Shown: one piece after another, positions 1,618 to 8,760 of the stretch | Position numbering within the stretch: the stretch's first letter is position 1 | How the letters are laid out: every line of letters starts with the position of its first letter | Assembly: GCA_938036315.1 (NCBI GenBank) | Contig: CALHPK010000028.1 | Coordinates: 1-8,760, forward strand | DNA: 8,760 bases | Source of the DNA: an uncultured bacterium | GTDB lineage: Bacteria; Calescibacteriota; Calescibacteriia; Calescibacteriales; Calescibacteriaceae | Reading direction: 5' to 3' | Position numbers and translations under genes: made by a program | The notes under the pieces: model-generated | Seen by the model: only the letters and a program-made list of their open reading frames with translations | Database searches by the model: none | Told to the model about the DNA's origin: nothing

Positions 1618-2463
1618 ATGAATAGCAGTAAAAAGGGAGAAAAGGTTTTTTCTGAAATAGGTGAGGGAGAGATAACGCGTGCGATAGTATCTGGTTTTAT
1701 GAAGTTCTTTAATGAGTTTGCATTTTCTGATGTTATAATTTTGGGAGCGGGTCCTGCTGGACTTGTTGCAGGGCGAGAGCTTGCCAAAGCAGGAATTAAG
1801 GTTCTCGTGATAGAAAGAAACAACTACCTTGGCGGAGGTTTCTGGATAGGGGGTTATCTTATGAATACAATAACGGTAAGAGCTCCGGGACACGAAATTC
1901 TTAGGGAAATAGGCGTAAGATTAGAAGAAGTTAAACCGGGGCTTTTCGTCTCACACGGACCTGAGTCTGCCTCTAAGCTTATTGCAGCTGCCTGCGATGC
2001 TGGGGTCAGATTTTTGCAGATGACATCTTTTGATGACCTTGTCATAAGGGATGGTAGAGTCCGTGGAGTTGTTGTGAATTGGACACCAGTTTCTGCACTT
2101 CCCAGAGAAATAACTTGTGTTGATCCAATTGCGCTTGAGTGTTCTTTTTTAGTTGATGCAACCGGACACGATGCCTTTGCCGTCAAAAGCCTTGAGGCGC
2201 GCGGACTTGTGAAAACTAAAGGAATGGGAGCTATGTGGGTTGAGATGTCAGAAGATCTTTTGGTTGAACACACTGGAGAGGTTTTTCCCGGACTTTATGT
2301 CGCTGGAATGGCAGTTTCTGAAACCTACGGATTACCAAGAATGGGACCAACATTCGGCGGAGTTTTAATGTCTGGAAAAAGAGTTGCAGAACTTATAATA
2401 GATGAGATCAGAAAGTCCAAAGATAGAAGAAAGGAAGAGGGTAGAGCTGAGGCAGGAAGATAA
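1618..2463 (+). CDS. thi4: THI4-type thiamine thiazole synthase
   Basis: Makes the ADP-linked thiazole precursor of thiamine from NAD and glycine plus a sulfur source, in an iron-dependent reaction in the cytoplasm. The dinucleotide-binding motif GAGPAG is at 43-48, followed by VIERNNYLGGGFWIGG (64-79), VDATGHD (179-185) and a C-terminal GLPRMGPTFGGVLMSGKR (238-255), all diagnostic of the family. Length (281 aa) is normal for prokaryotic forms, with a charged C-terminal tail. The position that decides the sulfur source reads ITCVDP, so Cys167 aligns with the Cys that yeast THI4 sacrifices (in CMDP). Methanogen enzymes carry His there and use sulfide. Asp169 and His184 are candidate iron ligands. 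Older annotations call the archaeal proteins ribulose-1,5-bisphosphate synthetase. It is the first gene of a pair with the DUF6775-like gene, and by eye its GC content is higher than that gene's. Confidence 0.93.
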   Translation: MNSSKKGEKVFSEIGEGEITRAIVSGFMKFFNEFAFSDVIILGAGPAGLVAGRELAKAGIKVLVIERNNYLGGGFWIGGYLMNTITVRAPGHEILREIGVRLEEVKPGLFVSHGPESASKLIAAACDAGVRFLQMTSFDDLVIRDGRVRGVVVNWTPVSALPREITCVDPIALECSFLVDATGHDAFAVKSLEARGLVKTKGMGAMWVEMSEDLLVEHTGEVFPGLYVAGMAVSETYGLPRMGPTFGGVLMSGKRVAELIIDEIRKSKDRRKEEGRAEAGR

Positions 2464-3316
2464 AAATCAAGGATACGAAATAAAAGAAAAAATCGGGGGT
2501 CAGAGTAAAAAAACAGGAACTATAAAGATTTTTCATGAAGATTTAGAAGAATATGAAGTTGAATCATTTGTTAGCAAAGTAGATCAGCTTGCCCACAATT
2601 TAGGAATAAATATTCAAGTTGATTATATAGGGAATATATGGGACAATCTCAGAAAATCTGAGCATAGTTTGTTTAAGTATGATAGGATATTTGAAAAGCT
2701 TGTAAAAATTAGGGTTATCAGGTGGGACAAATTCCTCCTTCACGAGTATGTTTCTCCAGCTGAAAAATCATTTGAAAGAAGGAGGGCGCAAGGTATAATA
2801 AAAAGTTATGGAATAGTTTATGATGGATTCGGTATCATCGGAGTGTTCAGGGAGTATCTTGCTTCCCAGTTTTTCCCTCTCACTTATGATGAGGTGCCAG
2901 TTATAATAACAAACAGGCAAATTGCTACCTTGGGAGATGATGGTAGATATCATCTCAGAATTGCTGTTTTGGGACACCCAGCAGTTATATCTAAACAAGG
3001 GTTGTTTTCAGCTCCTGCTAAACCTAAGGAGTATCACATTGCTAAGCTAGTAAAAGAAGATGAAGCTTTGCTTATAGGGATGGAGATTGAGGAAAAAATA
3101 AGAAAGCATCTACCTGAATTGTTATCTCCTTATATACTTTCTGCATTTTTGTGGATAAATTATGGGATATCTTTTTGTATGGATCGTTCGTGCTTATTTT
3201 CTGATTCTCACACTATCGATGAATTATTCGACTCTAAACTTCAGGTTCAGTTGAAACTCTGCAGGTATCATAAAAGTAAGATAGACGAAATCAGATTAGG
3301 TTTGGATAAAGATTAG
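2402..3316 (+). CDS. DUF6775-like conserved protein (putative metallopeptidase family), function unknown
   Basis: No biochemical function can be assigned. From memory the sequence matches a mainly archaeal family named DUF6775 (described as putative metallopeptidase): YDGF (140-143), ITNR (169-172), RYHLRIAVLGHPAVIS (182-197), GLFSAPAKPKEYH (200-212), then FCMDRSCLFSDSH (258-270) and a terminal CRYH (287-290). The last two blocks hold Cys, Asp and His residues that could bind metal. No HExxH motif, signal peptide or membrane segment is seen. The conserved part starts near residue 40 (TIKIFHEDLEEYEV); the first 36 residues are charged and lie partly in the 62-nt overlap with thi4. The ATG at 2402 is the only ATG before the conserved region but has a poor ribosome binding site; a non-ATG start such as CTG at 2447 is possible. 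Overlap implies co-transcription with thi4. Confidence 0.65.
   Translation: MRSESPKIEERKRVELRQEDKNQGYEIKEKIGGQSKKTGTIKIFHEDLEEYEVESFVSKVDQLAHNLGINIQVDYIGNIWDNLRKSEHSLFKYDRIFEKLVKIRVIRWDKFLLHEYVSPAEKSFERRRAQGIIKSYGIVYDGFGIIGVFREYLASQFFPLTYDEVPVIITNRQIATLGDDGRYHLRIAVLGHPAVISKQGLFSAPAKPKEYHIAKLVKEDEALLIGMEIEEKIRKHLPELLSPYILSAFLWINYGISFCMDRSCLFSDSHTIDELFDSKLQVQLKLCRYHKSKIDEIRLGLDKD

Positions 3317-4353: not shown

Positions 4354-4354
<1 letters not shown>
3353..4354 (-). CDS. nagZ: Beta-N-acetylhexosaminidase, glycoside hydrolase family 3 (NagZ type)
   Basis: Removes N-acetylglucosamine from 1,6-anhydro-muropeptides during cell-wall recycling in the cytoplasm. The GH3 signature KHFPGHG is at 166-172, followed by EDSH, whose Asp177-His179 dyad serves as general acid/base in NagZ enzymes. 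The nucleophile motif SDDL is at 245-248 (Asp246 most likely). IDEEGGRVKR (63-72) and the GIDINFAPVVDL block (114-125) also match the family. At 333 aa it is a single-domain enzyme of usual NagZ length, without a signal peptide, which argues for the cytoplasmic recycling form rather than a secreted glucosidase. Its ATG overlaps the ligA stop by one base (TAATG at 4356-4352), so translation is probably coupled. It ends in a basic Lys/Leu-rich tail and converges on the DUF6775-like gene 36 bp away. Confidence 0.93.
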
Positions 4355-6633
<2,279 letters not shown>

Positions 6634-7827
6634 CTACTTTACTTGCATTTGTGTAAGAAAATCTCTATCAAATTCTAAAAAAATGATTCCATCTGAAGTA
6701 TGCATAATAAAAATATCGTCATAAAGAAGCGGTATATTAAAGAAACTCGGAGAACTTACTGGGAGCGAAAAGGAATAAGCTTCCCCATTTCTAATCAAAA
6801 GTAGCTTATCATTATACTTTGCAAAAATACCATAACTTGTTGAAATAGGAAAGGAAAAATCTAATCCATCAATGAGATTATCAAAAAGAAAATCCCCATC
6901 TAAGCTGAAACCTGCTATATAACCGCTACTGCTTAAAACCAAAATTATATCATTAAATTGTATCGGTGTAACCAATATATCATTTATATCTATATATTCT
7001 GCGAATTTCAATTTATTCTCTGAAAAAAGAAGTAGCATAGTTTTTGAAGAAGGTTTTAATACATCTGATACAAAGGATATTGCTGAAACAAAAAATTTTT
7101 CGTTAAAAATATATGGGTATACTTGTGAGGTAATAAGAATAGAAATTTCCTCACCAAAAAAACACAATTGTAATTCTGCAGCAAATATTCCATCGCCTAT
7201 CTTAGTAGGTCTATCCTTTAAAATAAAAATACCTTTTTCGGTAGTGATTACAAAATTTCTACTGAATGCCATATGAACTATATTTTCTGGGAGCTGATAA
7301 ATATTTTTCATCATACCATCGTATCCGAAAATATAAACTTTATCTTCTACTCCAACGGCAACTTCTTCTGAGGATGATGCTATTGAGATAGGCTCACTAT
7401 CTAAATCGATTTTAGAAAGCTCCGAGCCATTGCATGAGAATACAAAAATAGTCTTTCCAAAATATGTAAAAACTTTATCTTTTAAAGTTGCACAATAATA
7501 ATTAGTTCTATTCTTAAAGCCCATATCTTTCACCATAATGTTGTTCCCATATAAATCGAAAACGTATAAAGTTCCACCTATATTCGTGAAAATATTTGAA
7601 TTACATAGACAGAAATTAGAACCCATTATAAAACTTTCTAAATTTCCTAAGGTCACAATTTTTCTCAGTTTTATTTTATTACTCTCAACTATTTTCAGGT
7701 TCCTAACTATATTAAAATTACTATTACTTTTTTTAAGTTCACACTTTGATTCTATGTACTTGTAACAGGAAAAAAGGATAAAAAGGGGAAGAAATTTTAC
7801 AATTTTTAGCATGGTGGTTTGAACCAT
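6634..7827 (-). CDS. Predicted beta-propeller lipoprotein, function unknown
   Basis: I do not recognise a specific family. The N-terminus has Lys residues, a hydrophobic stretch and a lipobox-like LFSC (Cys21), indicating an exported lipoprotein anchored through that Cys; Phe at -2 is not ideal. The rest is beta-rich, with about seven or eight modules 35-45 residues apart, each with a strand followed by a D/NG turn: GGTLYVFDLYGN (84-95), GKTIFVFSCNGS (124-135), EDKVYIFGYDGM (161-172), EKGIFILKD (197-205), SGYIAGFSLDGD (301-312), NDKLLLIRNGEA (339-350), DGIIFLEFD (379-387). This fits a PQQ-like or WD-like propeller. The ATG at 7827 follows GGAGG by only 3 nt; an in-frame ATG at 7812 keeps the signal peptide and overlaps the RHS stop as ATGCTAA. 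Either way it overlaps the upstream RHS gene, so it could be the cognate immunity protein (inference). Confidence 0.7.
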   Translation of the reverse strand: MVQTTMLKIVKFLPLFILFSCYKYIESKCELKKSNSNFNIVRNLKIVESNKIKLRKIVTLGNLESFIMGSNFCLCNSNIFTNIGGTLYVFDLYGNNIMVKDMGFKNRTNYYCATLKDKVFTYFGKTIFVFSCNGSELSKIDLDSEPISIASSSEEVAVGVEDKVYIFGYDGMMKNIYQLPENIVHMAFSRNFVITTEKGIFILKDRPTKIGDGIFAAELQLCFFGEEISILITSQVYPYIFNEKFFVSAISFVSDVLKPSSKTMLLLFSENKLKFAEYIDINDILVTPIQFNDIILVLSSSGYIAGFSLDGDFLFDNLIDGLDFSFPISTSYGIFAKYNDKLLLIRNGEAYSFSLPVSSPSFFNIPLLYDDIFIMHTSDGIIFLEFDRDFLTQMQVK

Positions 7828-8414
7828 TCGCCTCCAAATATATTTTTAAGGGGGCAATTTACAGCTAAGCAAAATAACCACCTTTCATCCCCACTTAATC
7901 TTTGTATTTCAGATACAATATCTCCATCAGATACAATATCTCCAATTTTTTTGCCTTTTAATCTGTTTGATAAATTTTCAGCCGCTCGTTTTATTGCTGA
8001 ACAACTTTTGCTATCTCCACATCTTGAACTTGTTCCATAAACTGTCTCAACCCAACATTCTACTCTGCAGTACCAATATGCAAGCCACCAGGGACAAATA
8101 CAACACCTGAATTTCAATCCTAATATATCAGTTCCGAATAATTTGCCTTTTGTAGTAAAGAAAGGCCTACAACTACAATCTCCAATTATTGCAAATACTG
8201 TCGGAGGAATAACAGCATATGCTGCAACAGTACCAATTATTACCCATACCCACCATGCAAGCTTGCCTGTTGGATCTGAAAAAACTATGGGGTTATTCTT
8301 TGCATATTCATATAAATCACAGAAACCCTTATCGCAGATTTGCCTACATGAAGGATCAATTTCAATAAACCTCCCAATTCTCGCATCATATACTCTCGCC
8401 CTATAATTGAACAT
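7806..8414 (-). CDS. RHS repeat-associated core end with Cys-rich C-terminal tip
   Basis: Residues 1-50 are the end of the RHS core: YRARVYDARIGRFIEIDP (4-21) and LYEYAKNNPIVFSDPTG (34-50). RHS proteins form a beta-cage shell that presents a variable C-terminal domain, often a toxin. The tip after DPTG (about 152 aa) is not a family I recognise. It starts with a hydrophobic segment WWVWVIIGTVAAYAVIPPTV (54-73), carries 12 Cys (including CCIC at 104-107) plus several Trp, and ends PPC. Three further Cys (23, 27, 32) sit in the core loop, which is unusual. The ATG at 8414 is internal to the core: the same frame stays open to 8555 and encodes more core (EYKYSPFGEVL, then TFIGREYLERLG), so the listed start is formal, not biological. 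It belongs with the fragment at 8401-8760 and overlaps the lipoprotein gene. Confidence 0.8.
   Translation of the reverse strand: MFNYRARVYDARIGRFIEIDPSCRQICDKGFCDLYEYAKNNPIVFSDPTGKLAWWVWVIIGTVAAYAVIPPTVFAIIGDCSCRPFFTTKGKLFGTDILGLKFRCCICPWWLAYWYCRVECWVETVYGTSSRCGDSKSCSAIKRAAENLSNRLKGKKIGDIVSDGDIVSEIQRLSGDERWLFCLAVNCPLKNIFGGEWFKPPC
7909..7944 (-). repeat. 18-bp in-frame tandem duplication in the RHS tip
   Basis: TCAGATACAATATCTCCA occurs twice, perfectly, at 7909-7926 and 7927-7944. It gives the protein run IGDIVSDGDIVS around residues 158-168 of the tip. Two identical adjacent copies imply a recent slippage event that kept the frame. Confidence 0.9.
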
Positions 8415-8760
8415 CCCTAATCTTTCTAAATATTCCCTTCCTATAAATGTATAGAAGTTGCGTTTTGCTCTTGAACCCTGGGCTACTAAAACCTCCCCAA
8501 AAGGTGAATATTTGTACTCTGCCGCTTTTTCCAGAACATGCTTTCCACAAATGGTCTATGTGATAATAAAGTGTTTGCTTGGGTTCTCCATTATCAGCTT
8601 TATCCTTAAAAACTTCCACCCACGTTGTCTTGTTAACTCTATCTGACTGATAATACATATCTTTTTGAGGAACTTTGAGTTTTATATGAAAAGGTTTTTG
8701 AGTAAAAACAGATTTTTGAAGTTCATTGTTAAATTTTGTTTGTAGGGTTAGCTGTGGGGC
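8401..8760 (-). pseudogene. RHS/YD-repeat protein, upstream fragment broken by a frameshift (runs off window)
   Basis: This frame is open from the right edge (APQLTLQTKFNNELQ...), through WVEVFKDKAD, to TLYYHIDHL, the RHS-core signature usually written YYxHxDHLGS. It then turns into unrelated sequence and stops at 8401. The expected continuation, EYKYSPFGEVL, is in the next frame and joins the 7806-8414 reading. Removing one A from the A5 run at 8526-8530 (minus strand) would give SGKAAEYKYSPFGEVL and one frame of 317 codons from 8760 to the stop at 7806. The DHL-to-SPFG spacing would then be about 18 residues against roughly 24 in typical cores, so a small deletion may also have occurred. 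It may be a true pseudogene, a phase-variable site, or a homopolymer sequencing error. The 5' end lies outside the window. Confidence 0.75.

What the first reader, a model, noticed from the sequence alone, without database searches (positions are those of the whole stretch)
6634..8260. Possible new RHS toxin tip with an overlapping lipoprotein immunity partner
RHS loci typically place a variable tip after the DPxG motif and an immunity gene directly downstream. Here an unrecognised Cys-rich, Trp-rich tip with a hydrophobic segment (even number of Cys, so disulfides are possible outside the cytoplasm) is followed, with a coding overlap, by a predicted beta-propeller lipoprotein. A membrane-active or envelope-acting tip neutralised by an envelope-anchored lipoprotein would be a coherent system. 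The pairing is inference: the lipoprotein could be unrelated to immunity.
Basis: inference. Interest (0 to 1): 0.7.

Follow-up and report, generated by a model that had tools for sequence, protein, structure and literature searches.

The report
RHS toxin tail with propeller lipoprotein partner
At the end of a short contig from a poorly known diderm bacterium lies the tail of an RHS-type bacterial weapon gene with an unclassified cysteine- and tryptophan-rich tip, overlapping a gene for a membrane-anchored beta-propeller lipoprotein in the position where the protective partner normally sits; the pairing is plausible but untested, and the RHS gene is interrupted as sequenced.

Summary
An RHS core end (TIGR03696, 67 bits) is followed by DPTG and a 152-aa tip (12 Cys, 9 Trp, no His, hydrophobic start). 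The next gene overlaps the tip by 7 or 22 nt and encodes a lipobox lipoprotein. A single-sequence AlphaFold model of it is a partial beta-propeller (best solved match BamB). Tip and lipoprotein have no relatives in Pfam, NCBIfam, PADLOC, PDB sequences, plasmids, viral contigs or 386 whole genomes (the tip also none in two species-genome scans), so the pair's co-occurrence cannot be tested.

Around 49 RHS tips in unrelated genomes, 40 adjacent downstream genes encode exported or membrane proteins, against 52 of 153 further-downstream genes (p about 4e-9). Ten of 49 carry a lipobox, against 7 of 153. Three are Pfam-recognised beta-propellers, one a BamB-type lipoprotein after a Cys-rich tip. Propeller enrichment itself is not shown.

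Best reading: the 3' end (or an orphan cassette) of an RHS polymorphic toxin with an envelope-acting tip and a lipoprotein immunity partner. Function is inferred.

The parts
8520..8760 (-). RHS core part upstream of the frame interruption, other frame, ends in the YYHIDHL motif; runs off the contig end
   Evidence: Translation. Motif Y(Y/F)xxDxLG precedes xPFGE in RHS relatives with 17 residues between (19 of 29 matches). The piece alone matches nothing convincing in PDB.
8265..8519 (-). RHS repeat-associated core end, EYKYSPFGE to DPTG
   Evidence: TIGR03696 67 bits, E 2.8e-18; the open frame 8555-7806 scores 64 bits; PDB sequence matches include TccC3, YenC2 and other RHS/YD shells.
7806..8264 (-). 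C-terminal tip: 152 aa, 12 Cys, 9 Trp, no His, hydrophobic first 30 residues
   Evidence: No family or relative found. AlphaFold single-sequence model unreliable, pLDDT 48.
6634..7827 (-). Exported lipoprotein with beta-propeller fold, putative immunity partner; probable start 7812, lipobox Cys codon at 7767-7765
   Evidence: ORF; lipobox read from sequence; propeller model and fold matches; 29% GC against 35-40% in the flanks; no sequence relatives.
4354..6399 (-). ligA, chromosomal anchor gene next to the module
   Evidence: NCBIfam LigA; 70-75% identical to the four other members of the phylum, about 60% or less elsewhere; ligA and the GH3 gene lie side by side in two of them.

Best explanation
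This is the 3' end, or an orphan cassette, of an RHS/YD-repeat polymorphic toxin locus. The C-terminal tip would be released from the RHS shell and act outside the cytoplasm, on the membrane or another envelope target. The overlapping gene would make a Sec-exported, lipid-anchored beta-propeller that binds the tip and protects the producer and its siblings. Shown: RHS core end, DPTG, orphan tip, overlapping gene, lipobox, propeller-like fold, absence of the module from the four phylum relatives, enrichment of exported partners behind RHS tips in general, and interruption of the RHS frame. Inferred: toxicity, envelope target, disulfides, neutralisation. As sequenced the toxin gene is broken or misassembled upstream of the tip.
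For: RHS core hit above cut-off. Overlapping gene order. Orphan tip and orphan partner, as expected for polymorphic cassettes. Adjacent downstream genes at 49 other RHS tips are exported in 40 cases against 52/153 control genes, and lipobox-bearing in 10/49 against 7/153. They are also mostly without Pfam match: 33 families in 48 proteins against 251 in 125 controls, one of the 33 being the known immunity family SUKH. All 11 Cys-rich tips have an exported neighbour (p = 0.098 against Cys-poor tips, a trend only). One Cys-rich tip is a phospholipase A2; another precedes a BamB-type propeller lipoprotein. The organism has Omp85/BamA, hence an outer membrane. Published precedents: propeller-like envelope immunity proteins Tsi1 (PMC3391265) and X-Tfi XAC2610 (PMC10933484), and lipoprotein immunity Imm65 (PMC3482391).
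Against: No relatives of either protein, so the pair cannot be shown to travel together. The RHS frame is interrupted and the N-terminal delivery part is absent. The lipoprotein differs in GC (29% against about 37%). Propeller lipoproteins have many other roles. Propeller enrichment next to RHS tips is not shown: 3/48 by Pfam, and at least 2/125 PD40 matches in controls. The tip model is unusable. Zhang et al. 2012 report no beta-propeller among the immunity proteins they surveyed (PMC3482391).
Confidence: 0.6

Rival explanations
1. The module is a decayed or stored RHS fragment: the tip is no longer made as part of an RHS protein, and the lipoprotein is a leftover or acts alone.
For: Frame change near 8520-8550 with a shortened linker; no RHS repeat elsewhere in the assembly; only one of five genomes of the phylum has an RHS core. 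Known RHS loci carry orphan tip cassettes (general knowledge), and tandem short RHS ORFs occur in the sampled genomes (e.g. G109:C159).
Against: The tip frame itself is open for 249 codons with no stop and the lipoprotein is intact. The interruption lies within 250 bp of a contig end, where assembly errors are common.
Confidence: 0.2
2. The lipoprotein is not an immunity protein but an accessory, for example a BamB-like assembly, display or anchoring factor for the RHS protein or for other envelope proteins.
For: Best Foldseek matches are BamB structures; propellers are common envelope scaffolds; the genome has Omp85/BamA.
Against: Propeller matches do not discriminate function: designed and WD40 propellers score as high. 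No sequence match to PQQ/BamB families. It overlaps the RHS gene rather than any BAM gene and is absent from the related genomes.
Confidence: 0.14
3. Chance neighbours: a host lipoprotein gene that happens to follow an inserted RHS fragment.
For: Different GC content.
Against: The coding overlap suggests translational coupling. The lipoprotein is absent from all four relatives, and their regions around ligA carry other genes.
Confidence: 0.06

Closest known systems
RHS/YD-repeat polymorphic toxins with C-terminal tips (TccC/YenC2-type shells, T6SS Rhs, teneurin-like proteins)
   Same: Core end with DPxG, variable tip, adjacent downstream gene; sequence matches to TccC3, YenC2 and Rhs structures.
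   Different: N-terminal delivery part not available, reading frame interrupted, tip belongs to no described tip family.
Imm65 lipoprotein immunity (with Tox-JAB-1), Zhang et al. 2012, PMC3482391
   Same: Immunity position behind a polymorphic toxin tip, N-terminal lipobox.
   Different: No match to any Pfam family, and the tip is not a recognised JAB domain. The paper calls Imm65 the only lipoprotein in its collection.
Tsi1 and X-Tfi(XAC2610)/PliI: periplasmic inhibitors with full or partial propeller-like folds (PMC3391265, PMC10933484)
   Same: Envelope-located, beta-propeller-like, neutralise secreted envelope-acting effectors.
   Different: Tsi1 is a fragment of a propeller (three sheets) and these inhibit peptidoglycan hydrolases of T6SS/T4SS or lysozyme. 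Here a roughly 375-residue mature protein, RHS-associated, no sequence relation detected.
BamB (outer-membrane assembly lipoprotein, eight-bladed propeller)
   Same: Lipid-anchored propeller; best Foldseek match.
   Different: No PQQ_2/BamB family match; next to RHS, not BAM genes; fold alone does not show membership.

Membership tests
RHS polymorphic toxin | RHS repeat-associated core ending in DPxG | tested here: met
   TIGR03696 above cut-off; DPTG at 8276-8265.
RHS polymorphic toxin | Variable C-terminal tip unrelated to the core | tested here: met
   152-aa tip without relatives.
RHS polymorphic toxin | One continuous reading frame from core into tip | tested here: inconclusive
   As sequenced not met: frame change near 8520-8550, linker 37 nt instead of 54. 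It lies within 250 bp of a contig end, so a true interruption and an assembly error cannot be told apart.
RHS polymorphic toxin | N-terminal delivery domain and full repeat shell | not testable with these tools
   Contig ends inside the core; the rest is not in the assembly.
RHS polymorphic toxin | Tip is toxic | not testable with these tools
   No known catalytic family; needs an expression assay.
Cognate immunity protein of a polymorphic toxin | Gene directly downstream, same strand, overlapping or closely spaced | tested here: met
   Overlap of 7 or 22 nt.
Cognate immunity protein of a polymorphic toxin | Co-occurs with the same tip in other genomes | tested here: inconclusive
   No relative of either protein found.
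Cognate immunity protein of a polymorphic toxin | Binds and neutralises the tip | not testable with these tools
   No complex prediction available here; biochemistry needed.
Bacterial lipoprotein | Signal peptide with lipobox and Cys | tested here: met
   MLKIVKFLPLFILFSC fits the PS51257-type rule with the start at 7812 (read from sequence; no signal-peptide predictor was run).
Beta-propeller protein | Ring of four-stranded blades | tested here: met
   Model partly confident (block means of pLDDT 65-87 over about residues 50-160), VIA Z up to 15, Foldseek E 1e-9; closed ring and number of blades not established.
BamB | PQQ_2/BamB sequence family match | tested here: inconclusive
   No PQQ_2 match for this protein; fold resemblance only.

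The most novel reading that the evidence does not exclude
Exported, often lipid-anchored full-size beta-propellers are a recurrent, unrecognised type of immunity protein for envelope-acting (often Cys-rich) RHS tips in diderm bacteria. This locus would be one case and the BamB-type lipoprotein behind a Cys-rich tip in L141 another.
Probability: 0.3. Interest if true: 0.6.

Novelty: new member of a known kind. Interest (0 to 1): 0.42.

Why it matters
If the pair works as inferred, it adds an unclassified envelope-acting tip and a propeller-type lipoprotein immunity protein to a system whose 2012 survey found no propellers and one lipoprotein among immunity proteins (PMC3482391). The side result, that genes directly behind RHS tips in this broad sample mostly encode exported proteins, suggests many RHS tips of little-studied bacteria act in the envelope, not the cytoplasm. 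That is testable at scale.

Tried and rejected
Weak tip matches in 386 genomes: the recurrent one to residues 96-151 was read in L023, where the open frame looks like glutamate synthase, and is taken as chance. Plasmid RHS matches that seemed to extend into the tip (H1-H3, H6): the alignments beyond the core are chance. Phospholipase A2 or a known nuclease tip: no His in the tip and no family match. My recollection of a common Cys-rich RHS tip with a Cys-Ala helix pattern was not confirmed; no tip in the sampled set aligned with ours. Contamination of the bin: rejected, since ligA on the same contig is 70-75% identical to the phylum relatives. Cys content of the tip predicting an exported neighbour: only a trend (11/11 against 29/38, p = 0.098). 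Propeller enrichment by Pfam: not shown. Several 400-440 aa exported neighbours (L110, L113, L121, L127, L135, L139) look propeller-like to the eye but have no significant family match, and three tested (L113, L127, L139) no PDB sequence match, so they are not counted. The tip model was not searched against fold libraries because its pLDDT of 48 would give meaningless matches.

Full report
What is in the window. The window is a complete 8760-bp contig (C28) of a 1.87-Mb, 85%-complete assembly. Its phylum has only five genomes in the held collection. Besides the finding it carries a GT4 glycosyltransferase, a Thi4-family gene, a DUF6775 gene, a GH3/NagZ-type gene and ligA. LigA is 70-75% identical to the four related genomes and about 60% or less to others searched, so the contig belongs to this lineage. 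The ligA and GH3 genes lie side by side in two relatives, and none of the four relatives has an RHS core or this lipoprotein. The module is therefore specific to this genome among those held.

The RHS part. On the minus strand the frame 8555-7806 is open for 249 codons and carries the RHS repeat-associated core end (TIGR03696, 67 bits), with PDB sequence matches to TccC3, YenC2 and Rhs shells. It ends in DPTG at 8276-8265. Upstream the coding frame changes: YYHIDHL, which in relatives is followed after G plus 17 residues by xPFGE (19 of 29 motif matches), is here separated from YSPFGE by 37 nt instead of 54 and lies in another frame. The gene then runs off the contig, and no RHS repeat is found elsewhere in the assembly. 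Real interruption and assembly error at a contig edge cannot be told apart here.

The tip. It has 152 residues, 12 Cys, 9 Trp and no His, and begins with a strongly hydrophobic stretch. Among 59 tips from other genomes it is the most Trp-rich, in the top tenth for Cys and in the top three for hydrophobicity. No relative was found in Pfam, NCBIfam, PADLOC, PDB sequences, viral contigs, two scans of 84,980 species genomes, plasmids or 386 whole genomes. The contig scans reach only close relatives. The single-sequence model is unreliable (pLDDT 48), although it suggests a helix, a beta sheet, then helices.

The lipoprotein. The next gene overlaps the tip gene by 22 nt from its first ATG, or by 7 nt (ATGCTAA) from an internal ATG that fits a lipobox signal peptide better. 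The mature part modelled alone is all-beta, with blocks of residues 50-160 at mean pLDDT 65-87. It matches propellers at VIA Z up to 15, and Foldseek ranks BamB first. The organism has Omp85/BamA, so an outer-membrane lipoprotein is possible. GC is 29% against about 37% for the RHS part.

A class-level test of the pairing. Instead I fetched the DNA downstream of 60 RHS core ends from genomes of many families and compared genes directly behind the tip (same strand, gap -60 to +250) with genes further downstream. By a hydropathy rule 40 of 49 adjacent genes encode exported or membrane proteins, against 52 of 153 others (odds ratio 8.6, p about 4e-9); 10 of 49 against 7 of 153 carry a lipobox (p = 0.0015). 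Adjacent genes match few Pfam families (33 in 48 proteins, against 251 in 125 controls), one of them the known immunity family SUKH. This is the behaviour expected of polymorphic immunity genes, many of them acting in the envelope. Limits: simple export rule, mechanical ORF starts, no phylogenetic correction, sample ranked by similarity to this core.

Propellers and Cys-rich tips. Three adjacent genes are propellers by Pfam: L141, a BamB-type lipoprotein 27 nt behind a tip with 7 Cys; L112, SBBP; and L145, YCF48/BNR, with a weak match to the T6SS immunity family Tli3. Others look similar but have no significant match, and propeller enrichment is not shown. All 11 Cys-rich tips have exported neighbours, but the contrast with other tips is only a trend (p = 0.098). 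One Cys-rich tip is a phospholipase A2, a precedent within the sample for a disulfide-type, membrane-acting tip.

Comparison with the literature. The 2012 survey of polymorphic toxins states that beta-propellers had not been found among immunity proteins and that Imm65 was the only lipoprotein (PMC3482391). Envelope inhibitors with propeller-like folds are known: Tsi1, a fragmented propeller (PMC3391265), and X-Tfi(XAC2610) and PliI (PMC10933484). Teneurin-like RHS proteins have downstream immunity genes that bind the tip (PMC13018210). The mechanism proposed here is therefore of a known kind with an unusual pair of parts.

Verdict. The specific toxin-immunity function is unproven and the toxin gene is interrupted as sequenced.

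Noticed in passing
L097 (G133:C9), RHS tip near its 5' end: RHS tip that is a phospholipase A2 (PF00068, above cut-off), followed 21 nt later by a 120-aa membrane protein.
   Followed up: partly
L141:258-1481, minus strand: BamB-type (PQQ_2) lipoprotein 27 nt behind an 85-94 aa RHS tip with 7 Cys; the closest analogue of the window's arrangement.
   Followed up: partly
G109:C159, about 8284-14859: Tandem short RHS open frames (about 340-450 aa), each with its own core end; looks like an array of orphan tip cassettes.
   Followed up: no
L086-L145: Genes directly behind RHS tips mostly encode exported or membrane proteins (40/49 against 52/153 controls).
   Followed up: yes
L095 and one other adjacent gene: Ankyrin-repeat proteins directly behind RHS tips in two loci (Pfam Ank); the one in L095 has a signal peptide-like start.
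   Followed up: no
window 2402-3316: Gene matching both DUF6775 (probable metallopeptidase) and DUF7001, overlapping the end of the Thi4-family gene.
   Followed up: no
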